From Rhodocyclaceae bacterium (GTDB lineage Bacteria; Pseudomonadota; Gammaproteobacteria; Burkholderiales; Rhodocyclaceae), in contig JACAEF010000041.1 in the NCBI GenBank assembly GCA_013388985.1, forward strand, positions 1 through 36,983: a DNA stretch of 36,983 nucleotides. Direction: 5' to 3'. The notes under the pieces were generated by a model. The model ran no database searches. It was not told where the DNA came from and saw only the letters and a program-made list of their open reading frames with translations. Below, piece by piece: positions 11,432 to 30,312 of this stretch; positions within the stretch are counted from its first letter, which is position 1; every line of letters starts with the position of its first letter. The position numbers and the translations under genes were made by a program.

Positions 11432-13734
11432 TCCTTCGCAACGAAAGCCGTATTGTGCCAGTAGCGGCGAGTGGCTTCCCTTTCCCGCCGCAGTGCCGTC
11501 CCACCAGCGCCGACTTTCAGCGTCACCGCGCCATCGCGGTCGGTGCGGTGGATGTTGGCATCGGCATAGCGCGCCAGCACTTCGGGATGGGGATGGCCGA
11601 AGCGGTTGCGGTAGCCGACCGGAAAGACGATCTCCCGCGCGCCCACCGCCGCGACGAAGGCCGGCGACGAGGTCTTCTTCCCGCCATGATGCGGCGCGAC
11701 GAGGATGTCGGAGCGCGCATCGTCACGATGGCGCGCGAGGAACTCGGCTTCCGCCTTGGCTTCGAGATCGCCCGGGACCAGCACGCTGCCGTACGGCGAT
11801 TCGATCTTCAGCACGCAGGAAAGCGCGTTGCTCGGCGCCTTCCGCTCGTAATCCTGCGCCGGCGGATGCAGCACGCGAAAGCGCACGCCATCCCACTCCC
11901 AGCCCTGCCCGTCGGCGCAGTGGCGCTCTTCGACGGTCACGGGCACGGCGGCCAGCAGCGAATCCGCGCCGCCCGCATGATCGCGATCGGCATGGCTGAC
12001 GATCAGCGTGTCGAGCCGCCGCACTCCGACCGCGCGCAGATAGGGCACGAGGATGCGGCTGCCGGCATCGGCTTGCGCCCCCGCGCCACCATAGGCCGGC
12101 CCGGCATCGAACATCAGGTCGTGCGTCGCCGTCTGCACATGCACCGCCTGCCCCTGGCCGACATCGAGCACGGTGAGCTTCAGTTCGCCCGTTCCGGGCC
12201 GCTCGGGCGCGATCAGGAACAGCGGCAGGAACAGCAAGGCGCCCGCCCAGCGCGCCGGAAAGCCGCGCGGCAGCAGCAGCCAGGCGACGCCCACCACCGC
12301 GACCGGCACGCACCATACCGGCGGCGCCTGCTGCTGCCAAAGCGCGCCCGGCAGATGCGCCAGCCAGCCGAGGAAATCCATCAGCGGCACGAGCAGCGCA
12401 TGCGCAAGCGTGAGCGCCCAGCGAAAGCCCGGCAGGCTGCCGACGAGCGCCAGCGGCGTAATGAGGAGGCTCACCAGCGGGATCGCCACCGCGTTGGCCA
12501 GCGGCGAGACGAGTGAGACCTGCTGGAACAGCGCGAGCAGCAGCGGGATCAGGCCCAGCGTGATCGCCCATTGCGCGCGCAGCCAGTCGATCAGCCAGTG
12601 CCGCCGGCTCAAGCCCTGCGCGCCGACGTAGAACAGCAGCGCCACGGCGCCGAACGACAGCCAGAAGCCGGCGGCGAGCACCGCCCACGGATCGGCGAGC
12701 AGCACCAGCAAGAGCGCTGCCCCCAGCACCGTCGGCGCGGCAAGGTTGCGGCCGGAGAGCAGGGCCAGCACGACGACGCCGAGCATGTAGAGCGTGCGCT
12801 GCGCCGGAATGCCGAAGCCAGCGAGCAGGGCATAGACGAACGCGCCGGCGAAGCCGGCGACGGCGGCGGCCTTTTGCGCCGGAAGGAGCAACGGCAGGCG
12901 CGGATGACGGCGCCACAGCGCCGAGACGAGCCAGGCCACGAGCCCGCCGATCATCGTCACGTGCAGGCCGGAGATCGACATCAGGTGCGTGATGCCGGTG
13001 GCCGAAAACAAGCGCCATTGCTCCGGCGGAATCGCCTGCTGGTCGCCGATCGCCAGCGCCGCCAGCACGCCGGCATAGGGCGCGTCGGGCAGCGCGCGCT
13101 CGATGCGCGAGCGCACCGCCTCGCGCAGCCGCTCGACCGACCAGCCAGCCGCCGCCTGCCGTCCCGTCAGCGCCGACTTTCGGACATAGCCCGTCGCCCG
13201 CAGCCCCCGCTCGAACAGCCAGCCCTCGTAGTCGAAGCCGTGCGGATTGACGTTGCCATGCGGCCGCTTGAGCCGCACGATGAACCGCCAGCGCTCACCC
13301 GCATGAGGCATGGCACCGGCGCCGCCGTCTTCCTCGTCCCCCTCCTCCTCGGCTTCGGGCGAAAACTGCCGGTACCAGGAAAGCAGGATGCGCGAGGGTA
13401 CCGGCGCGTTCGCGGCTTCCGGTTCGAACACGAAGCGCACGCCGCGCACCGGGTCACCCAAGCGTTGCGGCAGCTCGGCAATGACGCCGGTCATCTCGAT
13501 GTCGCGGCCTTCCCATTCCACCGGCAGCGCATCGTCGAGCCGCCAATGCGCGAAGCCGCCGGCCCAGACGAAGCCGAGCAGCGCGGCGCCGAGTATGCCC
13601 AGGCCGCGCCGGCGCAATAGGGACAGCGCAAGGCCCAGCGCGCCGAGCGCGGCGAGAAAAATCGGCGCTGGCAGCACGGCACGCTGCTGCAACCACCACA
13701 CGCCGAGCGCGAAAGCCAGCACGCGCCACGGCAT
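11428..13734 (-). CDS. comEC: ComEC/Rec2 family DNA uptake channel
   Basis: A 768-aa inner-membrane protein. Parts in order: N-terminal membrane segments and DUF4131/OB-type region, the competence domain with many helices (GITHLMSISGLHVTMIGGLVA is the classic motif), and a C-terminal metallo-beta-lactamase domain (LTVLDVGQGQAVHVQT, LIVSHADRDHAGGADSL, LVAPHHGGKKTSS). ComEC carries single-stranded DNA into the cytoplasm during natural transformation. Start ATG 13734 is chosen for the GGGGG stretch eight bases upstream and the MPWRVLAFALGVWW membrane start. Two copies of the dispersed 23-bp repeat lie inside the gene, one read as RKSALTGRQ before the competence domain and one at the C-terminus. 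Comment on uptake sites: see findings. Confidence 0.95.
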   Translation of the reverse strand: MPWRVLAFALGVWWLQQRAVLPAPIFLAALGALGLALSLLRRRGLGILGAALLGFVWAGGFAHWRLDDALPVEWEGRDIEMTGVIAELPQRLGDPVRGVRFVFEPEAANAPVPSRILLSWYRQFSPEAEEEGDEEDGGAGAMPHAGERWRFIVRLKRPHGNVNPHGFDYEGWLFERGLRATGYVRKSALTGRQAAAGWSVERLREAVRSRIERALPDAPYAGVLAALAIGDQQAIPPEQWRLFSATGITHLMSISGLHVTMIGGLVAWLVSALWRRHPRLPLLLPAQKAAAVAGFAGAFVYALLAGFGIPAQRTLYMLGVVVLALLSGRNLAAPTVLGAALLLVLLADPWAVLAAGFWLSFGAVALLFYVGAQGLSRRHWLIDWLRAQWAITLGLIPLLLALFQQVSLVSPLANAVAIPLVSLLITPLALVGSLPGFRWALTLAHALLVPLMDFLGWLAHLPGALWQQQAPPVWCVPVAVVGVAWLLLPRGFPARWAGALLFLPLFLIAPERPGTGELKLTVLDVGQGQAVHVQTATHDLMFDAGPAYGGAGAQADAGSRILVPYLRAVGVRRLDTLIVSHADRDHAGGADSLLAAVPVTVEERHCADGQGWEWDGVRFRVLHPPAQDYERKAPSNALSCVLKIESPYGSVLVPGDLEAKAEAEFLARHRDDARSDILVAPHHGGKKTSSPAFVAAVGAREIVFPVGYRNRFGHPHPEVLARYADANIHRTDRDGAVTLKVGAGGTALRREREATRRYWHNTAFVAKE
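11495..11517 (-). repeat. Dispersed 23-bp repeat, copy 1 (comEC 3' end)
   Basis: Matches AAAGTCGGCGCTG + NCNN + GACGGC on the minus strand with one mismatch at position 15. It encodes part of KVGAGGTALR near the ComEC C-terminus. Confidence 0.85.
13158..13180 (-). repeat. Dispersed 23-bp repeat, copy 2 (inside comEC)
   Basis: Perfect at all fixed positions on the minus strand, in the sense direction of comEC, and read in frame as KSALTGRQ. Confidence 0.9.
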
Positions 13735-13746
13735 TACAATGCCCCC

Positions 13747-14322
13747 ATGAAGCACTGGCTGCGCAAGCACATGCCGGACCACGCCGCGGTGAAGGAAAAC
13801 CGCTGGCTATACCCGTTCCGCAACACGCTGCTGCATCCGCGGCTGTGGCACCTCAACCGCCACTCTGCCGCCGGCGCGGTCGCGGCAGGGCTTTTCTGCG
13901 GGCTGATTCCCGGGCCGTTCCAGATGCTCGGCGCGGCAATCTGCGCCGTGATCTTCCGCATCAACCTGCCGCTGGCGCTCTTCACCACGCTCTACACCAA
14001 CCCCTTCACGATCGTGCCGCTTTATGTCATCGCCTTCGCGCTCGGCGAGGGAATGTTCGCGCTGCTGGGCCACCCAAGGCGCGCCTTCGTCGCCCCGCCG
14101 GACTTCGGCGACCCGGGCAGCGAGACGCTCTCCGCCTGGATCGGCGCGCTGATCGACTGGATGCTCCAGCTCGGCGCCCCGCTCGCCTGGGGGCTGGTGC
14201 TGCTGGCCAGCCTGCTCGCCGTCATCGGCTATTTCGGCGTACGCATCGCCTGGCGCATCTGGCTAGTGCGGGCCTGGCGCCGGCGCCGCCTCAAGCGGCG
14301 CCAATCGGCCATCGCGCAGTAG
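13747..14322 (+). CDS. DUF2062 family membrane protein
   Basis: A 191-aa protein with the DUF2062 pattern: [67 protein letters not shown], then a second membrane region near residues 150-175 and a basic C-terminus ([12 protein letters not shown]). Function is unknown; the family is an integral inner-membrane protein of about two to four helices. The ATG is only 12 bp from the divergent comEC ATG, with no ribosome-binding site visible; a TACAAT six bases upstream would give a leaderless mRNA. Its 3' end overlaps the lolD 3' end by 60 bp on the opposite strand. Confidence 0.85.
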
Positions 14323-14970
14323 CAAGCGGCGCTGGCAGGCATTGGCCAGCGCCATGTCGTGGGTGACGATGACGAGGCTGGTGCGATGTGCGGCGTTCAG
14401 GCGCAGCATCAGCGCGAAGACTTCGTCGGCGGTATGGCGGTCGAGGTTTCCGGTCGGCTCGTCGGCGAGGATGCAGGCCGGCTGCGTCACCAGGGCGCGG
14501 GCCAGCGCCGCGCGCTGACGCTCGCCGCCTGAGAGCTCGCCGGGGCGGTGCGCAAGCCGCGCGCCCAGCCCCACTTCGGCGAGGATCGCCGCCGCCCGCT
14601 CCTCCGCTTCGCCTTTCGCCATGCGCCGGATCAGCAAGGGCATCGCGACGTTTTCCAGCGCGGAAAATTCCGGCAGCAGGTGATGGAACTGATAGACGAA
14701 GCCGAGCGCCTCGTTTCTGAGCCGGCCGCGCTCGGCTTCCGAGACCCGGGCCAGATCCTTGCCGAGCAGATGCACGCTGCCGGACGTCGGCACATCGAGC
14801 CCGCCCAACAGATGCAGCAGCGTGCTCTTGCCCGAACCGCTCGCGCCGACGATCGCTGCCGTCTCGCCAGCGCCGATTTCCAGATCGACGCCATCGAGCA
14901 CGCGCACCTCCTCCTGCCCCTGGCGGAATACCTTGGTCAGCCCGGCACAGGTCAGCACCGCTTCACTCAT
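14263..14970 (-). CDS. lolD: Lipoprotein-releasing ABC transporter ATP-binding protein LolD
   Basis: A 235-aa ABC ATPase with Walker [10 protein letters not shown] (42-50), Q-loop [21 protein letters not shown], signature LSGGERQR, Walker [13 protein letters not shown] and the H-loop VTHD. The QFHHLLPEF stretch is characteristic of LolD. With LolC/E it extracts lipoproteins from the inner membrane for LolA. The ATG at 14970 overlaps the lolC stop by 8 bp, so the two are cotranslated. The C-terminal 20 codons overlap the convergent DUF2062 gene. The [10 protein letters not shown] stretch coincides with a near-copy of the dispersed repeat (14858-14880), here explained by the conserved ABC sequence. 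Confidence 0.95.
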
Positions 14971-16213
14971 AGCGCAGCGCCTCGGCGGGATTGACGCGCG
15001 AGGCGCGCCAGCTCGGATAGAGCGTCGCCAGCACGGTGAGGCTGAACGAAGTGACGCTGATGATCCAGACATCCGACCAGTGCAGGTCGGAAGGCAGGTC
15101 GGAGATGTAATAGACATCCTTGGCGAGGAACTGGATGCCGAAGACACGCTCGATGAACGGCACCACCGTCTCGACGTTCAGCGCCAGCGCGACGCCGCCC
15201 GCCACACCGAGCGCGAGGCCGATCGCGCCGATCAGCGTGCCCTGGATGACGAAGATACGCATGATGCTGCCGGGGCTCGCGCCCAACGTGCGCAGGATCG
15301 CGATGTCGGCGCGCTTGTCCTGCACCGTCATCACCAGCGTCGAGACGATGTTGAAGGCCGCCACCGCGACGATCAAGAGCAGGATCAGGAACATCATGTT
15401 CTTCTCGATCTGCACCGCGCGGAAGAAGTTGGCATGGCTCCTCGTCCAGTCGGTGAGCCGCAAACCGGCCGGCAGGCTGGCGGCCAGCTCGCGCGCCACC
15501 TGCGGCGCGGCGAACAGGTCGTCGAGCTTCAGGCGCACGCCGGAGACCGCATCCCCCATCTGGTAGAGCTTCTGCGCGTCCTCCATGCGCACCAGCGCGA
15601 GACCGCTGTCATATTCGAACATGCCGACCTCGAAGATGCCCACCACGGTGAATTGCTTCATGCGCGGCAGCACCGCCGCCGGCGTCACCACGCCCTGCGG
15701 TGCGATCAGCGTCACCTTGTCGCCGGGATAGGCTTGCAGCGCATAGGCGAGATCGCTGCCGAGGATGATGCCGAACCCGCCCGGCTGCAGGTTTTCCAGC
15801 CGGCCGGCCTTCATGTGGCGGGCGAAATCGGCCACCTTCTCCTCATCATTCGGCAGGATGCCGCGCACCAGCACGCCCTTCACCCGCCCGGCGAGCGAGA
15901 GCATCGCCTGCTGCTGCACATAGGGCGCCGCCGCGAGCACCCGGGGATGTTTGCCAGCCTGGGTGATTGCCGTTTGCCAATCGTCGAGCTCGCCCTCGGC
16001 GCCCATGATCTGGACATGCGAAGCGACACCGAGAATGCGCGTCCTGAGCTCCTTCTGGAAGCCGTTCATCACCGACAGCACGACGATCAGCGCCGCCACG
16101 CCTAAGCCCAGGCCGAGCATGGAAATCAGCGAGATGAAGGAGATGAAGCGGTTGCCGCCGCCCGGCTTCCTTGCCGCCGTGTAGCGCAGACCGATGAGGG
16201 TTTCGAAGGCCAT
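14963..16213 (-). CDS. lolC: Lipoprotein-releasing ABC transporter permease LolC/E
   Basis: A 416-aa permease. It has the N-terminal segment [60 protein letters not shown], a large periplasmic domain (about 50-270), and three C-terminal membrane helices around [21 protein letters not shown], ending [15 protein letters not shown], the LolC/E hallmark. Only one permease gene sits with lolD here, as in species that use a LolF-type homodimer or place the other permease elsewhere. The start ATG lies 10 bp from a perfect palindrome shared with the divergent gene. Confidence 0.94.
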
Positions 16214-16219
16214 TGGGGC

Positions 16220-16235
16220 GGCATGTTAACATGCC
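16220..16235. promoter_or_regulatory. 16-bp perfect palindrome between divergent lolC and the RpfE-like gene
   Basis: GGCATGTTAACATGCC lies in the space between the two divergent start codons, six bases upstream of lolC and just before the RpfE-like start. Its symmetry and location fit a dimeric repressor operator; no regulator is known. Confidence 0.4.
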
Positions 16236-16237
16236 TC

Positions 16238-17212
16238 ATGCACCTGACTTTGCTGGTTCCCGGCCTCTTGCTGCCGGTCGAAATCCTCGAGGGCACCACC
16301 TACGACCTCGCCGCGCCGCACCTGTCGCTGATCCTCGGCCGCGGCCGGCGGAGCGAGCTGCCGGACGATGCGCTCGCGCACCTCTTCGGCCTCGAACGGC
16401 TGCCTGCGGCGGCGCTGCGCAAAGTCGGCGCTGCCGGGACGGCACCCGGCGAGTGGCTGTGCCTCGACCCCGTGCATTGGCAGGTCGGCGCCGGCGGCGT
16501 GACGCTCGACGACCCCGCCCGCCTCGGCCTCGACGCCGCGGAAAGCGCGGCGCTGCTCGCCGCGGTGCAGCCCTTGTTCGCCGACTGGGGCGAACTCTCG
16601 GCTTCCGCCCCAGGGCGCTGGGAACTGCGGCTCGAACAACCCCTCGCGCTCGAAACCCAGCCGCTTCACGAGGCCATCCACCAGCCGATCGACCCGCAGC
16701 TCCCGGGCGGCGCCGCTGGCCCGGCCTGGCGGCGCCTTCTGCTCGAAGCGCAGACGGTGCTGCACGATCATCCGGTCAATCGTGCCCGCGAAGCCACCGG
16801 CCGCCCCACCGCCAACAGCCTGTGGCCGTGGGGTCTTGGCGCCCTGCCGGCAAAGATCGAGTCCGCGTTCGATGCCGTCCTGAGCGACGACCCGGTTATC
16901 GCGGGTCTGTGTCGCCATACTGGCATGACTTGCCATGCCGTGCCGCAACGCATGCCGCCGTCTGCCGGCCGCCTGCTGGCGATCGTCGACACGCTCGCCA
17001 TGCCCGCGCGCACGCTCGATGCGCTGGCCTGGCGCGACGCCCTGCTGGCGCTGGAACGCGACTGGCTGGCGCCGGCGCTGGCCGCCTGCCGGACGGTGAG
17101 GCTGATCGGCACCCGGCTGGGCTGGCAGCCCGCCGCCATCGCCTATGCTTGGCAGCGTGCCGACCGGCTGCGCTTCTGGCGCCGCATGCTTCCACTCACC
17201 GCATTGAAATGA
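16238..17212 (+). CDS. RpfE-type regulatory / phosphoglycerate mutase-like protein
   Basis: A 324-aa cytoplasmic protein beginning MHLTLLVPGLLLPVEIL. It resembles the betaproteobacterial proteins annotated as RpfE-type regulatory protein or cofactor-independent phosphoglycerate mutase homologue that lie just before recJ; the LWPWGLG motif and the C-terminal WQPAAIAYAWQRADRLRFWRR region are typical. No catalytic activity is established for the group. An alternative start at 16223 lies inside the palindrome. The stop overlaps the recJ ATG (ATGA). The dispersed repeat at 16421-16443 is in frame, read as KVGAAGTAP. Confidence 0.6.
   Translation: MHLTLLVPGLLLPVEILEGTTYDLAAPHLSLILGRGRRSELPDDALAHLFGLERLPAAALRKVGAAGTAPGEWLCLDPVHWQVGAGGVTLDDPARLGLDAAESAALLAAVQPLFADWGELSASAPGRWELRLEQPLALETQPLHEAIHQPIDPQLPGGAAGPAWRRLLLEAQTVLHDHPVNRAREATGRPTANSLWPWGLGALPAKIESAFDAVLSDDPVIAGLCRHTGMTCHAVPQRMPPSAGRLLAIVDTLAMPARTLDALAWRDALLALERDWLAPALAACRTVRLIGTRLGWQPAAIAYAWQRADRLRFWRRMLPLTALK
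16421..16443 (+). repeat. Dispersed 23-bp repeat, copy 3 (RpfE-like gene)
   Basis: Perfect at all fixed positions, in the sense direction of the gene containing it. Confidence 0.9.
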
Positions 17213-18900
17213 CCCACATCACGGTCCGCCCCGTCCCCCAGCGTGCGCGGCTGATGCTGGAGCAATCCGGCGTGCATCCGCTCCTGGCGCGGCTTTACGC
17301 GGCACGCGGCATCACCACGGCCGACGAGCTCGACACCCAGCTCAAATCGCTGCTGCCTCCTGAAGGCATGAAGGGCCTCGACGCGGCGGCCGCCCTGCTG
17401 GCCGACGCCGTGCAGGCGGGCAGGAAGATCCTCATCGTCGCCGACTACGATTGCGACGGCGCCACCGCCTGCGCGGTGGGGATGCGCGCGTTGCGGGGGT
17501 TCGGTGCGGCGGTCGATTACCTGGTGCCCAACCGCTTCGAGACCGGCTATGGCCTCTCCCCCGAAGTGGCGCGGCTCGCGGCGGCCAGAAGTCCCGACCT
17601 GCTGGTCACGGTCGACAACGGCATCGCCAGCGTCGCCGGGGTGGCGGAAGCGAAGCGGCTGGGCATGCAGGTGATCGTCACCGACCATCATCTGCCCGGC
17701 CACGAGCTGCCGGCTGCCGATGCGATCGTCGATCCGAACCAGCCGGGCTGCCGCTTCGCGAGCAAGGCCATCGCCGGCGTCGGCGTGATGTTCTACGCGA
17801 TGCTCGCCTTGCGCGCGGAACTGCGGCGGCGCGGCCATTTCGCGTCCCGCCCGGAGCCCGCGCTCGCCAGCCTGCTCGATCTCGTCGCCCTCGGCACGGT
17901 CGCCGACGTCGTGCCGCTCGACCGCAACAACCGCATCCTCGTCGCCCAGGGGTTATCGCGCATCCGCCAGCGCCGCATGTGCCCGGGCATCGCCGCCCTG
18001 CTTTCGGTCGCCGGCCGCGATCCGGCCCGCGCCGGCACCTTCGACCTCGGCTTCGCCGCCGGCCCGCGCCTCAACGCGGCAGGACGTCTGGCCGACATGA
18101 GCCTCGGCATCGAATGCCTGATCACTGACGATCCGGGCCGCGCGCTCAACATCGCCCAGCAGCTCGACGCGATCAACCACGAACGCCGCGCCATCGAAGC
18201 CGAGATGCGCGAAGCCGCTGCGATCCACCTCGAAGAGTTCGATGCCGCCGAGCGCGCCAGCGTCGTGCTGTTCGATCCCGGCTGGCATCAGGGCGTGATC
18301 GGCATCCTCGCCGGGCGCGTCAAGGAAAGGCTGCATCGCCCCACCTTCGTCTTTGCGCGCGGCGAAGGCGGCGAGCTCAAAGGCTCGGGCCGCTCGATTC
18401 CCGGCTTGCATCTGCGCGACGCGCTCGATCTGGTCGCCAAGCAGCAGCCGGACCTGCTCAAGCGCTTCGGCGGCCATGCCGCCGCCGCGGGGCTGACGCT
18501 GATGGAGCGCGACCTGCCGGAGTTCGCAACCCTGTTCGAGCGAGTCGCGCGCAGCCTCCTATCCCCCGCGACGCTGACGCGCACGCTGGAAACCGACGGC
18601 GCGCTCGAAGCCGCCTACCGCGGCCTGGATACGGCGCGATTGCTGCAAGGCGCCGTCTGGGGGCAGGCATTCCCCGCGCCCCTGTTCGCCGACGAATTCG
18701 AGGTCGTGCAGCAGCGGCTGCTCAAGGACCGGCACCTGAAACTGACGCTGCAACAGGGCCGCGCGCGCTTCGAGGCGATCCGCTTCAATCACCCGGAGGG
18801 CGCCCCCGACCGCATCCGCGCCGCCTACCGTCTCGACATCAACGAATGGCAGGGGGAGACAAGCGTGCAGCTCGTGCTGGAGCATTTCGAGGCCGCATAA
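17209..18900 (+). CDS. recJ: Single-stranded-DNA-specific exonuclease RecJ
   Basis: A 563-aa DHH-family nuclease. Motif I is ILIVADYDCDGATA (Asp79, Asp81, Asp83 region), motif II VTVDNGI, motif III VTDHH (DHH at 159-161), motif IV around LGTVADVVPL, and the DHHA1/RecJ OB part has KGSGRSIPGLHLRDAL and FGGHAAAAGLTL. All metal ligands are visible and length matches the family (about 565-577). RecJ degrades ssDNA 5' to 3' in recombination, mismatch and base-excision repair. Start ATG overlaps the previous TGA. It is followed by a small conserved gene, not by prfB as in several relatives. Confidence 0.97.
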   Translation: MTHITVRPVPQRARLMLEQSGVHPLLARLYAARGITTADELDTQLKSLLPPEGMKGLDAAAALLADAVQAGRKILIVADYDCDGATACAVGMRALRGFGAAVDYLVPNRFETGYGLSPEVARLAAARSPDLLVTVDNGIASVAGVAEAKRLGMQVIVTDHHLPGHELPAADAIVDPNQPGCRFASKAIAGVGVMFYAMLALRAELRRRGHFASRPEPALASLLDLVALGTVADVVPLDRNNRILVAQGLSRIRQRRMCPGIAALLSVAGRDPARAGTFDLGFAAGPRLNAAGRLADMSLGIECLITDDPGRALNIAQQLDAINHERRAIEAEMREAAAIHLEEFDAAERASVVLFDPGWHQGVIGILAGRVKERLHRPTFVFARGEGGELKGSGRSIPGLHLRDALDLVAKQQPDLLKRFGGHAAAAGLTLMERDLPEFATLFERVARSLLSPATLTRTLETDGALEAAYRGLDTARLLQGAVWGQAFPAPLFADEFEVVQQRLLKDRHLKLTLQQGRARFEAIRFNHPEGAPDRIRAAYRLDINEWQGETSVQLVLEHFEAA

Positions 18901-20022: not shown

Positions 20023-20045
20023 AGAGTCGGCGCTGTCGGGACGGC
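20023..20045 (+). repeat. Dispersed 23-bp repeat, copy 4
   Basis: One mismatch (position 2). It lies 13 bp beyond the stop codon of the leftward Abi gene. Confidence 0.85.
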
Positions 20046-20058
20046 GGTAGCGGTGCAG

Positions 20059-21111: not shown

Positions 21112-21134
21112 AAAGTCGGCGCTGGCTAGACGGC
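21112..21134 (+). repeat. Dispersed 23-bp repeat, copy 5
   Basis: Perfect at all fixed positions; lies 33 bp beyond the stop of the leftward 278-aa gene and upstream of the abi promoter. Confidence 0.9.
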
Positions 21135-22087: not shown

Positions 22088-22110
22088 AAAGTCGGCGCTG
22101 GCAAGACGGT
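22088..22110 (+). repeat. Dispersed 23-bp repeat, copy 6
   Basis: One mismatch (last base T). Located 83 bp upstream of the leftward 278-aa gene. Confidence 0.85.
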
Positions 22111-22511: not shown

Positions 22512-22534
22512 AAAGTCGGCGCTGCCGGGACGGC
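22512..22534 (+). repeat. Dispersed 23-bp repeat, copy 7
   Basis: Perfect at all fixed positions, in the non-coding stretch. Confidence 0.9.
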
Positions 22535-22883
22535 GATAGCGAGAGAGACAAAGCCGTGGCGCGCAGCGCGACGGCGTGGTGGAGTACGCGACACGGTAGC
22601 CACCTGCAAGCCGCAAGCCGGCGAGCAGCTTTACCGCTGGCCGGCGCAGTGGCGTAGCGGCGGCGGTGCAGGAGGGAATAGCGGTCGAGGTGCGCACAAA
22701 GCCAGGGCGCGGCCTTATGCGCGCTGGCGTGGATCAGTCCGTGACGCGGTAGCCCGGCAGGCGGCTTGCGGCGCCCGGTGACTCCTCCACGCGCCAGGAG
22801 CAAGCCGCATGACGGGCGTTCGGAGGGTGATGCGGAATTCGCGCGCTACGTCGGTTCGGGAACTGACACACTGGACGCAGTGA

Positions 22884-22906
22884 AAAGTCGGCGCTGGCGC
22901 GACGGC
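22884..22906 (+). repeat. Dispersed 23-bp repeat, copy 8
   Basis: Perfect at all fixed positions; ends 9 bp beyond the stop codon of the leftward SecB-like gene. Confidence 0.9.
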
Positions 22907-22915
22907 AAGCTGCCG

Positions 22916-23341
22916 TCAAAGTCCAAGCGGCAGGCCCTGAACCTGAAAGCCCATCGACATCAACTCGCGGCGAAAGTGGCTGGCGGCCAGCGGAAATGCC
23001 TGCGCTGCCAGCACATACTGATGTTGTTCCTGCTCGAAGCGTGGCAACAGTTCTGTCTCGGTCGTGCCCGGCGGGTAAGTGAAGCGCGCCTCATATTGCG
23101 CCGATAAATCGGCCAGCGACTGGTCCGGGGTCTCCTTGACGACGGCTTTACCATCCATGCGGATCGACACAATGGCCTCGAAGTTTCCCTCGGGTGTCGA
23201 AGGAACGCCCAAGCCGATTTCTATGGTTGGCGTCATCGAAAACATCACTTCCATGCGTTCGGTGCGCGGAAGCGCGTTGCGAGAATTGAACTCGATGACG
23301 CGAAACGTCATCAGGCGCGGGCGCAAGCTGGGATTGTCCAT
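22916..23341 (-). CDS. SecB-like chaperone of a toxin-antitoxin-chaperone operon
   Basis: A 141-aa protein, start ATG one base after the antitoxin TGA (a GTG at 23368 inside the antitoxin gene is the alternative). The middle holds FEAIVSIRMDGKAVV and SAQYEARFTYP beta strands, and the end AAQAFPLAASHFRRELMSMGFQVQGLPLGL matches the conserved C-terminal helix region of SecB-like proteins. In TAC systems such a chaperone protects an aggregation-prone antitoxin. Its place as third gene after MqsR and MqsA is the main support; sequence similarity alone is weak. Confidence 0.7.
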   Translation of the reverse strand: MDNPSLRPRLMTFRVIEFNSRNALPRTERMEVMFSMTPTIEIGLGVPSTPEGNFEAIVSIRMDGKAVVKETPDQSLADLSAQYEARFTYPPGTTETELLPRFEQEQHQYVLAAQAFPLAASHFRRELMSMGFQVQGLPLGL

Positions 23342-23342
23342 G

Positions 23343-23918
23343 TCAATGCAGTGTGCCGCGCAGCTCACCGTGCGGGGCGGAGTAAAGGATCATGCGGCGG
23401 ACGGTATGAGGTGCGTCTTCTTGCGATTGCATCTGCTTGACCACGAACTCGATGATGGCCGGGCGCAACTTAGCACGCATCGTGCGCGGCGGAATCTCCG
23501 CCGTCATACCCTTCAAGGCAACAAGCTCCGCGAACGCCTCCTCGCTTCGCTGCACCAGTCGTAACAGATTGTCCATCGACACTGAATGCACAACGTCATC
23601 CGTCTCGTATTTGCTGAAAGCCTTGGGGCCGCCACCGAACAGACGTGCCGCCTGATCCTGGGTGATGCCATACTGCTCGCGCAACGCGCGAATCTCGGCA
23701 CCGGTCAGCAGGCCATCGACCGACTTGCGAAAAGCCACCACGGCGCGCTTGTTGGCGCGGCTATCAGCGTCATCCGTGAGTTCAGAACCGCAGGCATCGC
23801 ACTCGGCAAAGCGCAGCGTTACCCTGCCTTGATGGCCGGCGTACTCGGTGACCGTATCCTCTACCCGCGAGGTCAAATGGCCCTCGCCGCACAGCGGACA
23901 CAGCGTTTTGTCGCTCAT
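23343..23918 (-). CDS. MqsA-type antitoxin with C-terminal extension
   Basis: A 191-aa protein, start ATG 23918 with GGGGAAG five bases upstream. The N-terminal zinc module has Cys7, Cys10, Cys40 and Cys43 (CPLCGEGHL and ECDACG). An Xre/HTH domain follows (LTGAEIRALREQYGITQDQAARLFGGGPKAFSKYETDDVVHSVSMDNLLRL), the MqsA fold with the GGGPKAFSKYE hallmark. E. coli MqsA ends near residue 131; here about 55 extra residues remain (PRTMRAKLRPAIIEFVVKQ...), fitting the chaperone-addiction tail of TAC antitoxins. It should bind the toxin and repress the operon. Confidence 0.88.
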   Translation of the reverse strand: MSDKTLCPLCGEGHLTSRVEDTVTEYAGHQGRVTLRFAECDACGSELTDDADSRANKRAVVAFRKSVDGLLTGAEIRALREQYGITQDQAARLFGGGPKAFSKYETDDVVHSVSMDNLLRLVQRSEEAFAELVALKGMTAEIPPRTMRAKLRPAIIEFVVKQMQSQEDAPHTVRRMILYSAPHGELRGTLH

Positions 23919-23932
23919 GATCTTCCCCGTCT

Positions 23933-24343
23933 CTAGCTCGATGTATGACAAGACACGATCAGAATCAGCTTGCCCGACTTACCCAATGCAAATTTCAAAA
24001 AGTACTCGATGCGAAAAGACTTACCGGCGGCTTCGATGAATTCAAGGCGCTTGAGCGTGTAGGCATCGCACGCCGCCCAGCTATTGCCGTTATCGCACCA
24101 TTCCGAATCCCGGTAATCTTGTTTCGTCAGTTCCCGAATCAAGCCGCCCACATCATCCGTATCAAACCCCAATTTGGCCACATCCTGCATGCAGCGGCGC
24201 GTCCAGAGATTCAAGCTGCCCGCTTGAAGCGTCAGCGCCTGCACGTCGGCAAGTGGATACAGCGGCCCGCCAGCGATTTTTCGGCTCTCGCCGTCCTTCG
24301 GTAAAACCCCATTGAAGGCCGACAAGTTTTTGAATGGTACCAC
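23933..24343 (-). CDS. MqsR-like mRNA interferase toxin
   Basis: A 136-aa protein encoded just upstream of the MqsA-type antitoxin, with a 14-bp gap. It contains GGPLYPLADVQALTLQAGSLNLWTRRCMQDVAKLGFDTDDVGGLIRELTKQDYRDSEW and an ending RIEYFLKFALGKSGKLILIVSCH, which follow the MqsR order (PxYPLxxV..L, LGFD..D....I..L...DFYKS, strand-rich C-terminus with phosphate-binding Lys). MqsR is a RelE-fold ribonuclease cutting at GC-rich trinucleotides. The start is GTG at 24343, inside a palindromic candidate operator. Toxin-first order is that of mqsRA. Confidence 0.82.
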   Translation of the reverse strand: MVPFKNLSAFNGVLPKDGESRKIAGGPLYPLADVQALTLQAGSLNLWTRRCMQDVAKLGFDTDDVGGLIRELTKQDYRDSEWCDNGNSWAACDAYTLKRLEFIEAAGKSFRIEYFLKFALGKSGKLILIVSCHTSS

Positions 24344-24350
24344 GATGGTA
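24338..24350. promoter_or_regulatory. Candidate MqsA operator at the toxin start
   Basis: TACCA-CGA-TGGTA is a 13-bp inverted repeat that includes the toxin start codon. MqsA binds short palindromes in its own promoter, so an autorepression site is plausible. Confidence 0.4.
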
Positions 24351-24501
24351 AGTTCCGTGTTCTTCCGTTAACGGCCAAGGAGGGCCAATAATGAGTGTGA
24401 AAACCTGTGGTTTCTGTGCGGCGGGCCGGCCAGTCGAATGCTATTAGCGAGCATTTTAAGCGGCACACAAGGGCGAGCCACCCCAAAGTTGGTGCTGATC
24501 A

Positions 24502-25929
24502 CTACGCCCCGGCAATCTCATCGCGCAGCATCTTTAGCGCGCCCTGTTCCAACGTCCACGCCTCGTCGCGCAGGCGGTTGGCGTCAAGCACCAAGGCGGC
24601 AATGGCTTTGCGCTCGGGGTCGGGTAGGAGTGGCACGGAGACTTCTCCAGCCATGAAGCGGTCGAATTCGAGAATCACCGAGCCGTAGCTGTATCGAGTA
24701 ATCAACGCTTGGCCGTAATCGCTTGCCAGCCACGCATAGAGATAGCCGGCTTTCTCGTCGTCTGCCGGGATGATGCGCAGCGCGTGCTGATTGGCCGCCC
24801 AGCCGTTCATGTAGGCGGGGATGATCTGAACACGGCCAATCGTGCCGGAACAGGTAATCGCAATCGTATTCGTGGCGAGCGCAATCTCTTCCATATCGTC
24901 CGTGTGCGCGCCACGTGCCAGCCCTTTCAACTCGATGGGATCGACCTGGAAAAGCTGCTTACTGGAAAGCAGCGGGATACCGCCCTTGGGCACATAGACG
25001 CGCTTGCGGAATTTGGTGACGGCGTTGATCGCCTGGGTCAGCCGCGCATCGGAGAGCGGCAGTACCGGCAAGCCGCTGGCGCGAAGCTGTTGCTCAACCC
25101 AACGCGCCGTCGGGTTATGAAACGAGGCATCGAGCCGGCCGGCCCAATCGGCGGCGCGGATGGTGCCGACCACCGGGCCATGATTCAGCGCCGGCAAGGG
25201 CGGCAGTTTCAGCGCGGCGCGCAGTCGCGCGTCGGCGGCATCCAGTTGGTCGTTGGCCGCGTCGCGTTTCAAGGCGGCATCGACAAAGGCGCGGCCGATG
25301 GCGATGCGGCGAATGGCGGGGAGATCGGGGATCAGGACGCGCTCAAGGTGGTGGGGCTCGATGTGCTGGACCACCGAACCGTAAGTCAGGCCGACCAGTT
25401 GCGCGCGGCCCCATTGTGTCCGCAAGAACGCCGCGACATAACCCGCCGTGTCACGATCCGGCGCGGTGATGCGAATGGCGTGCTCTGACAATACCCAGCC
25501 CGCCATGCGCGGGGACGCCAGGCTGACATTGCCAATGGTGCCGGAACGAGAAACCAGCACCGTCCAGGGCTGGATGAGTAGCTGTTCGAGTTTTGGCGTG
25601 TGCTTGCGGCTCAGATAGTTGCCGCGTTCTGGTCGCAGTCCGATGATGTCGGAACTGGAAAGGAAGGGAACGCCATTCGTTTCGCCAACATAGACGCGCG
25701 GAAACCTGGCCCCGTTGTGTGCGTCTTGGCATACCCCGCCTTCCCCCAACACCGCCTTGAGCGGATGCGGGCACGCCTGCAACTCCGCGATGGCTTGTCG
25801 CGCTTCGAGCGCGTAGGCGGAGGCTTCGAGACGCAGTCCCGCGCCCATGACTTCGGTCAGGCGCACGCCGACGCTGCGGCTGGCCAGATGCGCCTTGCCC
25901 TGCGAGTGAGCGCGGGCGGTCTTCACCAT
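24502..25929 (-). CDS. Restriction-modification specificity subunit (HsdS type)
   Basis: A 475-aa protein with two target-recognition domains and a visible internal repeat. TRD1 has GVPFLSSSDIIGL, VSRSGTIGNVSLASPRMAGWVLSEHAIRI and YGSVVQHIEPHHLERVLIPDLP. TRD2 has GIPLLSSKQLFQV, ITCSGTIGRVQIIPAYMNGWAANQHALRI and YGSVILEFDRFMAGEVSVPLLPDPE. Conserved helices follow each TRD. Such subunits read a bipartite DNA target for the methylase partner. The ATG overlaps the methylase stop by 7 bp (ATGGTGA), so both are cotranslated. A degraded copy of the dispersed repeat lies at 24485-24507, over the stop codon. Confidence 0.9.
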   Translation of the reverse strand: MVKTARAHSQGKAHLASRSVGVRLTEVMGAGLRLEASAYALEARQAIAELQACPHPLKAVLGEGGVCQDAHNGARFPRVYVGETNGVPFLSSSDIIGLRPERGNYLSRKHTPKLEQLLIQPWTVLVSRSGTIGNVSLASPRMAGWVLSEHAIRITAPDRDTAGYVAAFLRTQWGRAQLVGLTYGSVVQHIEPHHLERVLIPDLPAIRRIAIGRAFVDAALKRDAANDQLDAADARLRAALKLPPLPALNHGPVVGTIRAADWAGRLDASFHNPTARWVEQQLRASGLPVLPLSDARLTQAINAVTKFRKRVYVPKGGIPLLSSKQLFQVDPIELKGLARGAHTDDMEEIALATNTIAITCSGTIGRVQIIPAYMNGWAANQHALRIIPADDEKAGYLYAWLASDYGQALITRYSYGSVILEFDRFMAGEVSVPLLPDPERKAIAALVLDANRLRDEAWTLEQGALKMLRDEIAGA

Positions 25930-27932
25930 CCGAGCACCGCCGACTTTTTCCAGTCGAGAAATTCGCGCGCAACGACGGGGGTATCGTCATCGACCTGTTT
26001 GGTCGGCCGCAGCACGCGGCGGCTGGCGTCGCCTTGGGCGCCAACCTCATACAACTCGGTTTCCTCGCCCTCGGGCGGAAACAGGATTTCCTCGCCGTCG
26101 TCGTTGCGTTTGTAGAGCACGTTGCCGCGCTTGTCGTGGCCGATGGCGAGCGTCTGCGCCATAAAGATTTCGTAGTCGTCGAGTTGCCCCTGCTTTTCTT
26201 CCTTGCGCATTTCGTCGGCGGTTTTCTTCTGCAACAACAGCACCGAGGTTTGCGTGCCGTTGTTGGGCTGGAAGGTGTCCGGATGCAGGTCGATGCTGGC
26301 GACGATGCGGCAATGGATCATGATCCACCAGCGCACATATTCCAGGTCGGGATTGCCGAGAATGCCATCGGGCAAAACGATGGCCATGCGGCCGCCGGGT
26401 TTGAGCAACTGCCAGCAGCGTTCGATGAAAAGGATTTCCGGCGGGCGCGTGCCGTAAAGCTCGTCGGTCATCCGCCAGCGGCCGTCGTCGCCTTTCTTCC
26501 AGACATGGGCTAGATCAAATTGCGCCAGGGTTTCACGGTCGGAGACGGGCAGCTTGCCGCCGAAGGGCGGGTTGGTGGCAATGACGTCCCAGTGACCGAT
26601 GCAGTCCGGCCCGCGCAGTTCGGCGGGGTCGATCTCCAGCGCCTTGGCGAGCTTGTCGCGGAATTCAGGCTCCCATTGATGCGGATGGGAGAGGCTGTCG
26701 TTTTGCAGGATGTTGCCGGAGCCGTCGTTGTTCATCACCATGTTCATCTTGGTGGCCTTGACCAGCTCGCGGTTGATGTCGAAGCCGAAGAAACAGCGTT
26801 CGGCGGTCTCGCGAATCTTCTCGTTCAGCACTTGCCGGTAGCCATCGCCGGACGGCATGTCGCGCAGCGAGCCTTTGAGTCGATCAATGACTTCGTTCAT
26901 GGCGATGACCAAGAAGCCGCCCGTGCCGCAACTCGGGTCCAAAATCTTCTCGCCCGGCTTCACGTCGAGCATCTGGATGGCCATGCGCTGAACGTTGCGC
27001 GGGGTGAAGAATTCGCCGCGGTCGCCGCGAAGGTTGCTGCCAATCAGTTCCTCGTAGGCTTTGCCCTTCACGTCGATGTGCGTGTCGAGGAAGCTGTAGC
27101 GTTGCAGTTCGCCGACGATGTAGGCGAGCGAGCGCGGCTTGAGAGTAATGACGTCGTTGGCGTCAAAGATCGCCGGATAGCGCTTCTTCACTTCGTTGAA
27201 AATCTTGCCGATGCGGTTCTGCACCGTCAGCCGGCCATCGTTGCTCGCCTTCTCCTTGGCCGTGGCGTAGAACTCCAGCGGCTTGGGGATGTTGCGCTCG
27301 TCGTGAATCTTGCAGAAGATGACCTTCAGCAGCTCGAAAAAGGCTTTGTCCTTCGGCAGGCCGTCGGTGATGTAGATATGGTCGTGACAGGTACGGAAGG
27401 AAAACAACAGGTTGTCGTCGGTCGAGCGCATTAGGCGCTCGCGCGTCGGCCGGTCGGTGTCGTCGATATTGCCGTCGTGCGCGGGGATGTCGTTGGGTTC
27501 CTCCCACTGCACGCGCCCCTCGGCTTCGATGCGGCGAAAGACCGACTTGTGCCGTCCGTTGGTCCACATGCCCCACTGCGCATTAGGGCAGGACGACAGG
27601 TAGGACTTGAGCTGATCCTCGCCGTCCTTTTTGTCGGAAGGCTTCACTTTCTCATGCTTGCATTCGATGATGATGTCGATGTGTTCCTGCTTGTGCAGAG
27701 CGCCATCGGGGAAGATGGCGATGTCGACGCGCTTGGTAGATGAGCCCACCTTGATCGGGAATTCGACGGCGATGCGTTCCGGCTTGTAGCCCAGTTCCTT
27801 GACCAAACGACGCTCGATGTTCTGTCGGACATATTCCTCGGGCGTGTCATTGCGGATCGTGCCGTCAATGAAGTCGCAGATTTTTCCGTCGGGCAGCGTG
27901 GTAATCAGCGGGGCGGTCATCTTTTCTGCCAT
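25923..27932 (-). CDS. N6-adenine methylase fused to an N-terminal PD-(D/E)XK domain (R-M subunit)
   Basis: A 669-aa protein, start ATG 27932 (MAEKMTAP), preferred to the TTG at 27956. Residues about 35-140 resemble the HsdR N-terminal nuclease domain: D70 in RVDIAIF and E90-x-K92 in DIIIECKHEK form a PD-(D/E)XK core. From about 285 comes an HsdM-type methylase: GSNLRGDRGEFFTPRNV, SAM motif I LDPSCGTGGFLVIAMNE (332-341), motif IV NPPFGG (454-457). No separate helicase/endonuclease HsdR gene exists in the window. With the adjacent S subunit this looks like a two-gene BcgI/type IIB-IIG-like or minimal type I-like system. Confidence 0.88.
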   Translation of the reverse strand: MAEKMTAPLITTLPDGKICDFIDGTIRNDTPEEYVRQNIERRLVKELGYKPERIAVEFPIKVGSSTKRVDIAIFPDGALHKQEHIDIIIECKHEKVKPSDKKDGEDQLKSYLSSCPNAQWGMWTNGRHKSVFRRIEAEGRVQWEEPNDIPAHDGNIDDTDRPTRERLMRSTDDNLLFSFRTCHDHIYITDGLPKDKAFFELLKVIFCKIHDERNIPKPLEFYATAKEKASNDGRLTVQNRIGKIFNEVKKRYPAIFDANDVITLKPRSLAYIVGELQRYSFLDTHIDVKGKAYEELIGSNLRGDRGEFFTPRNVQRMAIQMLDVKPGEKILDPSCGTGGFLVIAMNEVIDRLKGSLRDMPSGDGYRQVLNEKIRETAERCFFGFDINRELVKATKMNMVMNNDGSGNILQNDSLSHPHQWEPEFRDKLAKALEIDPAELRGPDCIGHWDVIATNPPFGGKLPVSDRETLAQFDLAHVWKKGDDGRWRMTDELYGTRPPEILFIERCWQLLKPGGRMAIVLPDGILGNPDLEYVRWWIMIHCRIVASIDLHPDTFQPNNGTQTSVLLLQKKTADEMRKEEKQGQLDDYEIFMAQTLAIGHDKRGNVLYKRNDDGEEILFPPEGEETELYEVGAQGDASRRVLRPTKQVDDDTPVVAREFLDWKKSAVLGW

Positions 27933-28085
27933 GAACTTCACTCGAATGGAATGCAAAAGCCGGAGACATGCGCCGCCGGCTGAATTAGAAGAATGCTACC
28001 TGATCGCGTCAAGGGATAGGCTGGAAAGTGACGGGCAAATCCGGGATATTCTCCGGCTAGTCTGGCTCATAGGGCGCGCCATCGC

Positions 28086-28108
28086 AAAGTCGGCGCTGGC
28101 AGGACAGC
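28086..28108 (+). repeat. Dispersed 23-bp repeat, copy 9
   Basis: One mismatch (position 21). It ends 5 bp beyond the stop codon of the leftward DUF3987 gene. Confidence 0.85.
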
Positions 28109-28113
28109 ACACA

Positions 28114-30312
28114 TCAGGCTTTCACCTTCGGATTCACCCGATACCGCACATGCCCGCGCATCTGCCAGCCTGCCGCCTGGGCATCGCGCAACAGCCAGCC
28201 GGCCTCGGTCAGTTCGCCCAGGGCTTGGGCGACGATCTCGGGGTCGTCGAGCAGGCTCCATTGCTTGCGGTAGATGTCGCGGGCAGTGAAGGTTTCCAGC
28301 CCGTCGAGCGCGCCGGCCTGGATGCGCCGGGCCAGTTCGCCCGCAGCCTGACTTTGCAGCATCTGACCAAGGGCGAAGACACGGCGGGCGTGGGCGGCGA
28401 GGTAGCTGCACCAGCCTTGCGCGCGGCGGGCGGCAGCCTCCGACACCGGACCGGGCGCTAGGCCCTGCCGGATGGCGTCGGCGCGGTCGATCAGGTGAAA
28501 CAGCAGCGCCAGCGCGGCAAAGGTCTTGGGTTGCTTGGAGAGGTATTCGACGATCAACGGCGGCGCCTCCGGCGCTTCGATCTGGTTCAGGTGCAGGTCG
28601 TCATACCAGGCGTTGAAAACTTCCTGCGCGGCATCGGCAAAGCGCAGGTGGGGAATCTTGCCGTAGCGGTCGGTTTCGCCCATCAACGCGAAGTCGGCGC
28701 GCGCCAGGGTATCGAAGACGGCGAAGGCGGTATCGCGCGCGGCGGCGTCCGGGTATTCATCGACCATGCCGGTATAGGCTGCGGTGTCGGGATAGACCAG
28801 CAGTTGGAAGCGTTGCAAGAGGCCGTCGTTTTCCTGCCGGGCCTGATAGAGATAGCCGCGCACCTTATCGGGCTGGGTGCCGCCGAGAATGGAGACGCAC
28901 ATGTTGTCGCAGATGACATGCCCGCGCCCGATGCGGTCCAGCGGAAAACTGCCGTGGCCGTTCCAGGCTTCGAGATAAAAGGCGCGATCTTGCTCGTGGC
29001 CTTGTTTCTCCCAGCCCTTGAGCAGGCCGACGAGTTCATCACGGAAGACGAGGATGCCGCGCGGGTTGGCGGAGAGCAAATCGTGCAGGGCTTCGATGGT
29101 GACGTCGTTGGTGCGAAAGCGCGCTTGCAGTGTGCCGGTGGGCGGGGCGGTGAGCGCGGCGAGCTCGGCCTTGATGATCGCGGCGGGACGCACCTGCAAA
29201 ATTCGGCGCTGGCGGGACGGCACTTCCTTCTTGCCCTTGGCTTCAACATAGGCATCGGCTTCGGTTTCCAACCGCGCTTCTTCGCGCTCGGCCTTGATGG
29301 CGGCTTCGAGCTCCTTTTTCAGGAGCTTCTGCTTGATCTTGGTTTCGGGGTCGGCCGCAACGGCCTTGGCCTGCTGGGTGCCTTCCTTGGCGGCGACTTC
29401 CAGACGGCCGAGCGCCTTGAGCATCTCGGCGAGAGACGGGGTTTTCTTTTTCGAGGGCGGGCCGATGATGCCGCCCCACAGGTTGGGAATCACCAGCCAG
29501 TCATCCTTGCGCTTGGGGCGGATGCCAACGGCGGCACCGACCACGGCGGCCAGCGCCACCAGCGCGCCGACGGCGCAGTAATCGACCGGGCATTGCATGC
29601 GATAGGCCACGTCGGCGACCCAGCCGCGCAGCGGCGCGGGGATCAGGTCGGTGTCGAGCGCCGGCACGGCGGGTAGCTGCTGGCCGATGGCTTCGGGCTG
29701 CGGCAGGGCGTCGTATTCGGCCTGGCGCGCGGCGGCGATGAACGGCGCAGGGTCGAGCCAGTCGCCGGGCAGGCGCTCGAAGTGGCCTCCGCCTGGAGGC
29801 GCAAGAAATGGCTGCGAGAGTTTTTCGGCGCAGGCATCCAGCCCCGGCAGGTCGAGTGTCATCGCAAACTGCCGATAGGTGCCTATCCAGTCGCGCGCCG
29901 GCACGGGTGCGGCCAAGGGCAAAATCACGCGCAGCCGCGGCGCCGTTGGGGTGCTGCGCTTGGTGGTGTAGATCGCGGCTTCCCAGCCGGCCAGCGCGGC
30001 GCGGATGCGGTCGAGGTCGGCTTCTTTGTCGATGTCGAGCACCAGCGCGGTCATGGCGATCACATTGGCGTCGTGGCGCGTGCTACCCGGCTTGAACTCA
30101 GCAAAGATCAGCGCGGGAGCGGCTTCCGGGTTGGCGACGCGCGGTGCGGCCTGCATCTGCGCGAAACGCTCCACCAGTGCGTCCCAGCGGGTCTCGGCCG
30201 ACTCGATCTGGTTCGACCTGACGCCGCCTTTCTGCAGGGCGTAGCGCAACAGTCTGTCCAGTGTGTCAGTCACCATTCCCGGGTTCGGCGCGATTTTCTC
30301 CAGGGCGTTCAT
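28114..30312 (-). CDS. Primase-polymerase-like / DUF3987 helicase-like replication protein
   Basis: A 732-aa protein, start ATG 30312 overlapping the stop of the CHC2 gene (ATGA). Residues about 60-190 look like an archaeo-eukaryotic primase-type domain (TALVLDIDKEADL with the acidic strand, AIYTTKRSTPTAPRLRVILPL). Then comes DUF3987: VDYCAVGALVALAAVVGAAVGIRPK, a degenerate P-loop GPPSKKKTP (284-292), RFRTNDVTIEALHDLL, FRDELVGLLKG and SILGGTQPDKVRGYL. Such proteins start or unwind DNA for replication of plasmids and satellites. The odd feature is VPSRQRRILQ at about 364-373, encoded by an in-frame copy of the dispersed repeat within a charged coiled linker. Confidence 0.82.
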   Translation of the reverse strand: MNALEKIAPNPGMVTDTLDRLLRYALQKGGVRSNQIESAETRWDALVERFAQMQAAPRVANPEAAPALIFAEFKPGSTRHDANVIAMTALVLDIDKEADLDRIRAALAGWEAAIYTTKRSTPTAPRLRVILPLAAPVPARDWIGTYRQFAMTLDLPGLDACAEKLSQPFLAPPGGGHFERLPGDWLDPAPFIAAARQAEYDALPQPEAIGQQLPAVPALDTDLIPAPLRGWVADVAYRMQCPVDYCAVGALVALAAVVGAAVGIRPKRKDDWLVIPNLWGGIIGPPSKKKTPSLAEMLKALGRLEVAAKEGTQQAKAVAADPETKIKQKLLKKELEAAIKAEREEARLETEADAYVEAKGKKEVPSRQRRILQVRPAAIIKAELAALTAPPTGTLQARFRTNDVTIEALHDLLSANPRGILVFRDELVGLLKGWEKQGHEQDRAFYLEAWNGHGSFPLDRIGRGHVICDNMCVSILGGTQPDKVRGYLYQARQENDGLLQRFQLLVYPDTAAYTGMVDEYPDAAARDTAFAVFDTLARADFALMGETDRYGKIPHLRFADAAQEVFNAWYDDLHLNQIEAPEAPPLIVEYLSKQPKTFAALALLFHLIDRADAIRQGLAPGPVSEAAARRAQGWCSYLAAHARRVFALGQMLQSQAAGELARRIQAGALDGLETFTARDIYRKQWSLLDDPEIVAQALGELTEAGWLLRDAQAAGWQMRGHVRYRVNPKVKA
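29199..29221 (+). repeat. Dispersed 23-bp repeat, copy 10 (inside the DUF3987 gene)
   Basis: One mismatch (position 4, G to T). Antisense to the gene; the coding strand reads PSRQRRI. Confidence 0.85.

What the first reader, a model, noticed from the sequence alone, without database searches (positions are those of the whole stretch)
11495..29221. A 23-bp dispersed repeat occurs at least ten times in the window
Copies at 11495(-), 13158(-), 16421(+), 20023(+), 21112(+), 22088(+), 22512(+), 22884(+), 28086(+) and 29199(+) share AAAGTCGGCGCTG + NCNN + GACGGC with 0-1 mismatch at the 20 fixed positions (five are perfect). Chance occurrence is negligible. Near copies lie at 980-1002, 6813-6835, 14858-14880 and 24485-24507. 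The variable positions are always 14, 16 and 17, like the spacer of a bipartite recognition site. It sits in both core genes and a mobile element, so it is a property of the genome, not of the island. The reverse strand begins GCCGTC, which recalls (perhaps by accident) the Neisseria uptake word. Candidate explanations: a DNA uptake or recognition signal, a mobile micro-repeat, or a protein-binding site.
Basis: seen in the sequence. Interest (0 to 1): 0.8.

Follow-up and report, generated by a model that had tools for sequence, protein, structure and literature searches.

The report
Genome-wide DNA self-recognition word with dialects
Some environmental bacteria carry a 24-letter DNA word hundreds of times, spelled in species-specific dialects, which looks like the "self" tag by which competent bacteria prefer DNA of their own kind, in a family where I found no such tag described.

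Summary
The repeat is real and genome-wide. The window genome (2.90 Mb; Rhodocyclaceae by its relatives) holds 505 copies, 257 and 248 on the two strands; the reversed-pattern control finds none. The conserved unit is 24-25 bp, AAAgTCGGCGCTGGC-nnn-ACGGC(A/G), with nothing beyond.

17 of 18 congeners and five other genera carry it. None of 291 sampled genomes from other families of the order has more than 5 copies. At orthologous sites it comes and goes by substitution in place, rarely if ever by insertion. It follows no replication strand, is a DNA-level signal (50 copies in genes against 5.5 after synonymous shuffling) and is spaced too evenly for chance.

Most telling are genome-wide dialects...ACGGCA...ACGGCG...GCGGC or ...ACGGTG by the hundred, also at the same orthologous sites. 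One genome of another genus keeps both ends but changes the middle.

This is the pattern of Neisseriaceae and Pasteurellaceae uptake sequences. I infer a third such system with a longer word. Uptake is untested and the receptor unknown; the ComP-like pilin does not track the dialects.

The parts
979..1001 (-). copy of the word, 2 mismatches at the fixed positions
6813..6835 (-). copy, 1 mismatch, antisense in the RNase E gene (4407-7181)
11495..11517 (-). copy, 1 mismatch, sense in comEC (reads KVGAGGTA)
13158..13180 (-). perfect copy, sense in comEC (reads KSALTGR); the orthologous site in G004 carries the ACGGTG dialect
14858..14880 (-). copy, 2 mismatches, sense in an ABC ATPase gene (reads EIGAGETA); orthologues without the word have the same length
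16421..16443 (+). perfect copy, sense in recJ (16213-18900)
20023..20045 (+). copy, 1 mismatch, ending ACGGCG (rare dialect in this genome)
21112..21134 (+). perfect copy, antisense in the Abi_2/AbiD-like gene
22088..22110 (+). copy, 1 mismatch, outside listed genes
22512..22534 (+). perfect copy, ending ACGGCG, outside listed genes
22884..22906 (+). perfect copy, outside listed genes
28086..28108 (+). copy, 1 mismatch, outside listed genes
11428..13782 (-). comEC (Competence, DUF4131 and Lactamase_B domains), DNA-uptake channel gene by family; context, and site of three copies

Best explanation
The word is a DNA uptake sequence: a self-tag recognised at the cell surface during natural transformation. 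A receptor, probably part of the type IV pilus machinery, prefers DNA that carries the word, so tagged DNA of relatives is taken up and recombined more often; the word accumulates and is kept by this bias. When the preference shifts, hundreds of copies are rewritten in place, which gives species dialects. SHOWN: genome-wide abundance on both strands, selection on DNA rather than peptide, gain and loss in place, even spacing, taxonomic confinement, dialects also at orthologous sites. INFERRED: that uptake during transformation drives it, and that a receptor exists. NOT KNOWN: the receptor.
For: 505 copies, control 0. Mismatch spectrum 23, 25, 12, 9, 5 for 0-4 mismatches against 0, 0, 0, 0.03, 0.3 for permuted motifs in 400 kb. 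263 anchored orthologue comparisons: 129 lack the word, 68 of them with no length change, one with -24; by site 23 of 41 lacking sites have a same-length orthologue, 1 of 41 about -24. No strand rule. Synonymous shuffle 5.5 (max 9) against 50. Even spacing, CV 0.62 against 0.85. Genome-wide dialects in 29 genomes and at orthologous sites. A second middle with the same ends in G028. comEC in the window, prepilins incl. a ComP_DUS member in the genome.
Against: No uptake or transformation data. The ComP_DUS pilin is also in genomes without the word (32 of 32 searched) and does not follow the dialect within the genus. The window's mobile island is not poor in copies, whereas Neisseria DUS are reported absent from recently acquired genes (PMC2397512, passages). 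Neisseria DUS are also reported to face gaps often; here they mostly do not. Of the competence genes I only confirmed comEC and pilins; a regex for ComEA and DprA in sampled stretches of the genus found nothing, which is a weak test over part of the genomes.
Confidence: 0.78

Rival explanations
1. Binding site of a chromosome-organising (nucleoid-associated or segregation) protein. The protein binds the 24-bp word along the whole chromosome and selection keeps hundreds of evenly spaced sites; dialects would follow changes of the protein.
For: Even spacing, genome-wide spread, high conservation, two-block shape.
Against: Selection would have to act on each of hundreds of sites inside genes and rewrite them all in each dialect; orthologous sites turn over freely. 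No replication-strand rule. Not palindromic. The regional distribution was only sampled (20 stretches).
Confidence: 0.13
2. Mobile micro-repeat (REP/MITE-like) that spreads by insertion.
For: Hundreds of near-identical dispersed copies.
Against: Of 129 comparisons lacking the word, 68 show no length change and 1 shows -24. The unit is not palindromic, and dialects change in place.
Confidence: 0.03
3. Recombination or segregation signal read on one strand (Chi- or KOPS-like).
For: Abundant, non-palindromic, genome-wide.
Against: 257/248 copies on the two strands (P 0.72). In G017, 16/16 in the eight sampled stretches 273-1251 kb, where GC skew is positive, and 17/20 in the other twelve. The unit is far longer than Chi or KOPS (recalled).
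Confidence: 0.02
4. A recurrent protein motif seen through its codons.
For: Some peptides recur, such as KVGAGGTA and AVPPAPTF.
Against: Six reading frames and both strands are used, 19 of 69 copies are intergenic, and synonymous shuffling leaves 5.5 of 50.
Confidence: 0.01

Closest known systems
DNA uptake sequence (DUS) and its dialects in Neisseriaceae (PMC3630211, PMC3868556, PMC2397512: passages seen)
   Same: Hundreds of copies, tolerated in genes, species dialects consistent over a genome, betaproteobacterial hosts with a ComP_DUS-family pilin; the reverse strand shares the string GCCGTC with ATGCCGTCTGAA.
   Different: 24-25 bp with two blocks against 10-12 bp; 505 copies against 1,474 in one meningococcus strain; the core CTG conserved in all DUS dialects is not kept (G016 has C or T at position 12, G028 another middle); no uptake data; the ComP-like pilin does not follow the dialects.
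Uptake signal sequence (USS) of Pasteurellaceae (PMC12616744: passages seen)
   Same: Genome-wide over-represented word held to mark self DNA for transformation; receptor still unproven.
   Different: Unrelated word (the USS core is recalled, AAGTGCGGT); gammaproteobacteria; shorter core.
REP/MITE-type dispersed repeats (recalled)
   Same: Many short dispersed copies.
   Different: Not palindromic, no insertion footprint, mostly inside genes, species dialects.

Membership tests
DNA uptake sequences (DUS/USS) | Strong genome-wide over-representation of one fixed word | tested here: met
   505 copies, reversed control 0; mismatch spectrum against permuted motifs
DNA uptake sequences (DUS/USS) | Both strands used, no replication-strand rule | tested here: met
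   257/248; 16/16 and 17/20 by skew half in G017 sample
DNA uptake sequences (DUS/USS) | Copies inside genes, selected as DNA | tested here: met
   50 of 69 in genes; synonymous shuffle 5.5 against 50
DNA uptake sequences (DUS/USS) | Arises in place in homologous sequence, not by transposition | tested here: met
   68 of 129 lacking comparisons with zero length change, 1 with -24
DNA uptake sequences (DUS/USS) | Species-specific dialects | tested here: met
   29 genomes; orthologous sites
DNA uptake sequences (DUS/USS) | Depleted in recently acquired DNA | tested here: inconclusive
   The window's island holds seven copies; a 20-kb stretch of G017 with GC 56% has none; 108 viral-contig stretches not examined
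DNA uptake sequences (DUS/USS) | Closely spaced inverted pairs at gene ends | tested here: inconclusive
   No two neighbouring copies within 200 bp in 400 kb of G017; convergent gaps are preferred; two close inverted pairs appear in lists for G016 and G004
DNA uptake sequences (DUS/USS) | The word enhances DNA uptake or transformation | not testable with these tools
   needs an experiment
Neisseriaceae DUS | 10-12 bp word with core CTG then GAA-like end, in Neisseriaceae | tested here: not met
   Different longer word; middle not conserved; host family differs
Neisseriaceae DUS | Cognate receptor ComP whose sequence follows the dialect | tested here: not met
   A ComP_DUS pilin is present but does not follow the dialect: G013 against G000, same spelling, 56% identity, RNase E 93%
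REP/MITE mobile repeats | Insertion footprint at empty sites | tested here: not met
Chi/KOPS-type signals | Strand bias along the replichores | tested here: not met

The most novel reading that the evidence does not exclude
Rhodocyclaceae hold a third bacterial self-DNA code: a 24-bp two-block word (AAAGTC...ACGGC) whose middle and end change in concert between species. It is read by a receptor other than the ComP/FimT-type minor pilins of the ispH-linked operon, and it acts as a species barrier to gene exchange in environmental bacteria. If the shared GCCGTC block is no accident, this code and the Neisseria DUS could descend from one betaproteobacterial ancestor.
Probability: 0.45. Interest if true: 0.92.

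Novelty: new variant of a known kind. Interest (0 to 1): 0.83.

Why it matters
A 2025 paper states that only Neisseriaceae and Pasteurellaceae are known to choose homologous DNA by such words (PMC12616744, passages). A third case in environmental betaproteobacteria, with several dialects inside one genus, would show that self-tagging of DNA is wider than thought, and would give a natural series for how a reader and hundreds of sites change together. Dialects could also mark where imported DNA came from. The claim makes a direct prediction: natural transformation in Sulfuritalea-like bacteria, with barriers set by a few bases.

Tried and rejected
Mobile repeat, Chi/KOPS and peptide motif: rejected (see rivals).

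Receptor hunt: prepilins of seven genomes (G000, G017, G019, G026 with the word; G005, G023, G028 without the main word) were collected in part and clustered. Not all matches were listed or fetched. Three clusters (GspG-, PilW- and FimT-like by my own recognition) held only the four word-bearing genomes, but FimT- and PilW-like proteins of G005 were seen outside the clustering, so this is no association. The tree of ComP-like pilins is flawed and not used: 17 of 30 loci gave no protein because only one strand was read. ComP-like pilins within the genus do not follow the dialect; FimT was compared by eye only.

Word search in genomes with few or no copies: of 13 sampled (40-312 kb), G028 has a word of the same frame with another middle, G064 a weak mixture, and 11 show none of that frame. 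Samples of 40-80 kb can miss sparse words, and G083 and G067 have other over-represented 10-mers (GGCCCGGGCC 22 against 2; CAGCGCCAGC 21 against 3.9) that I did not pursue. A regex for ComEA- and DprA-like proteins in sampled stretches found nothing. The 108 viral stretches were not examined.

Literature: searches found 0 papers; 136 (15 listed), 29 17, 54 4, 66 28 (15 listed), 67 402 (15 listed), 68 4. Among the titles and abstract starts listed I saw no such word for Rhodocyclaceae. The library lacks most subscription journals and bioRxiv. Four papers were read in passages only: PMC12616744, PMC3630211, PMC3868556, PMC2397512. One of ten searches is unused.

Gene calls are my codon-usage heuristic. 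Comparisons are not independent; 373 of 636 were dropped as weakly anchored.

Full report
OBSERVATION. The word AAANTCGGCGCTGNCNNGACGGC occurs 14 times in the window with up to 3 mismatches, against 0.01 in shuffles. In the whole genome (G000, 2,896,965 bases, 156 contigs) the 19-base core with at most one mismatch occurs 505 times, 257 forward and 248 reverse; the reversed control finds 0. An alignment of 224 distinct copies (up to 3 mismatches) from stretches of the genus shows conservation confined to about 25 positions: AAA, a loose position 4, TCGGCGCTGGC, three loose positions, ACGGC, then mostly A or G, then often C. In 400 kb of the complete congener G017 there are 23, 25, 12, 9 and 5 copies with 0 to 4 mismatches, where 30 permuted motifs give means of 0, 0, 0, 0.03 and 0.3.

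WHO HAS IT. In the genus, 17 of 18 other genomes have 219-688 copies and one (G005) has 2. Of 121 genomes drawn from the family, 12 have 116-560, two have 17 and 20, and 107 have at most 9; the bearers fall in genera g1, g2, g9, g62, g70 and g88. Of 300 genomes drawn from the order (24-mer, up to 2 mismatches), 0 of 291 from other families exceed 5. Contig lengths tie some handles to Rhodocyclaceae or Sulfuritalea records (G001, G009, G011, G018, G019).

WHERE IT SITS. Of 69 copies in twenty 20-kb stretches of G017, 50 are in genes (26 sense, 24 antisense) and 19 between genes, with coding about 82% by my own gene calls. All six frames occur, led by those reading KVGAGGTA (17) and AVPPAPTF (16). 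Shuffling synonymous codons leaves a mean of 5.5 (maximum 9) of 50, so the signal is in the DNA. Of 17 intergenic copies with known neighbours, 10 lie in convergent gaps, which make up 18% of intergenic bases. Copies are spaced more evenly than random placement (CV 0.62 against 0.85, sd 0.08; 2 gaps under 1 kb against 10.3). Strand use does not follow GC skew: 16/16 and 17/20. In the window, copies lie in rne, comEC (three), an ABC ATPase gene, recJ, an AbiD-like gene and a DUF3987 gene.

HOW COPIES ARISE. The first 19.5 kb of the window matches all 19 genomes of the genus. Copies in 21 stretches were aligned with orthologous places. Of 636 comparisons, 263 were well anchored: 134 hold the word (up to 4 mismatches) and 129 do not. 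Of the 129, 68 show no length change, most others change by multiples of three, and one is 24 bases shorter. By site: 59 sites, 18 held by all anchored orthologues, 41 lacking in at least one; 23 of the 41 have a same-length orthologue without the word, and one has a change near -24. The word is thus mostly written and erased in place. In Neisseria, DUS are reported often to face gaps and to arise by recombination (PMC2397512, passages); the same-length pattern here differs in degree.

DIALECTS. Exact counts of four endings in 29 genomes. ...ACGGCA against ...ACGGCG: G000 386/8, G017 357/4, G002 204/6, G013 279/13; G010 43/363, G008 31/306, G015 38/337, G009 31/279, G007 49/341; mixed in G001 333/101, G011 259/174, G003 190/229, G012 111/142, G006 99/57, G014 170/146, G018 77/82. 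G016 has 464 of TCGGCGCYG...GCGGC (0-32 in the other 28) and only 0/4 of the first two. G004 has 244 of ...ACGGTG (0-45 in the other 28) and 2/11. G005 has 0 of all four. Other genera spell mostly ...ACGGCG: G019 23/356, G110 12/361, G157 14/141, G026 12/167, G079 41/321, G087 10/55, G141 28/242, G105 10/59, G153 9/167. In G110 about half of 16 sampled copies begin AGAG. At single orthologous sites species show their own spelling; one comEC site ends ACGGCA in G000 and ACGGTG in G004. G028, at background for our pattern (6 hits), has AAAGTCAG-TCCC-like words of the same frame ending ACGGCG or ACGGCA: 13 hits at spacing 12 in 98.5 kb, 12 of them with AAAGTCAG, and none at spacings 6-11 and 13-18. 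G064 has 7 hits at that spacing, a mixture of the two middles and others, against 0-1 at other spacings.

MECHANISM. Concerted rewriting of hundreds of dispersed sites in place, without insertion and without strand rule, is what biased uptake and recombination of tagged DNA would do. It is the described state of Neisseriaceae, where eight dialects are each conserved within species and act as barriers to transformation (PMC3630211, passages incl. abstract). I therefore read the word as an uptake sequence; this step is inference. The genome has comEC, 15 prepilin-motif matches and one minor pilin of Pfam family ComP_DUS. That family is present in 32 of 32 genomes searched, with and without the word, and in 17 of 19 of the genus; the two misses are incomplete assemblies. 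Within the genus the pilin does not follow the dialect: G013 spells like G000, yet its pilin is 56% identical to that of G000 and 68% to that of word-less G005, while RNase E of G013 is 93% identical to that of G000. The receptor is open.

AGAINST AND OPEN. Between tRNA-Arg and tRNA-Asn (19745-32987) lies an island with integrase, methylase and specificity genes, an AbiD-like gene and a MqsA-like antitoxin gene (searches do not cover it). It is not poor in copies: seven of the fourteen lie there. Two of its five exact copies end in G, as do 8 of 394 genome-wide (one-sided P 0.0035; noticed before testing). This may mean import from a relative with the other spelling. A chromosome-binding protein is not excluded. 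Single full-length copies in distant families (such as G217, G047, G170) may be imported tracts; not followed up.

PRIOR WORK. [quoted passage not shown] My searches, several with capped lists, showed none for Rhodocyclaceae.

Noticed in passing
window 19745-32987: Island between tRNA-Arg and tRNA-Asn with a phage-type integrase (31629-32828), methylase/HSDR_N and specificity subunits, AbiD-like gene, MqsA-like antitoxin and DUF3987 gene; two of its five exact copies of the word have the G ending that is rare in this genome.
   Followed up: partly
L395-L398, L227-L229 (G028): Another genus has a word with the same ends and length but another middle (AAAGTCAGTCCC...ACGGCG).
   Followed up: partly
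L418 (G013) against L250 (G005) and L259 (G000): The ispH-linked minor pilin (ComP-like) of G013 is closer to that of G005 than to that of G000, although RNase E is 93% identical to G000: perhaps a swapped pilin operon.
   Followed up: partly
G170:C3:26361-30944, G047, G217, G312: Few but full-length copies of the word in distant families of the order, in one case clustered within 5 kb; possibly imported tracts.
   Followed up: no
L297 (viral contig): Five copies on one strand, the first four at a regular 316-base step.
   Followed up: no
L407-L410 (G083): Palindrome GGCCCGGGCC 22 times in 80 kb against about 2 expected.
   Followed up: no
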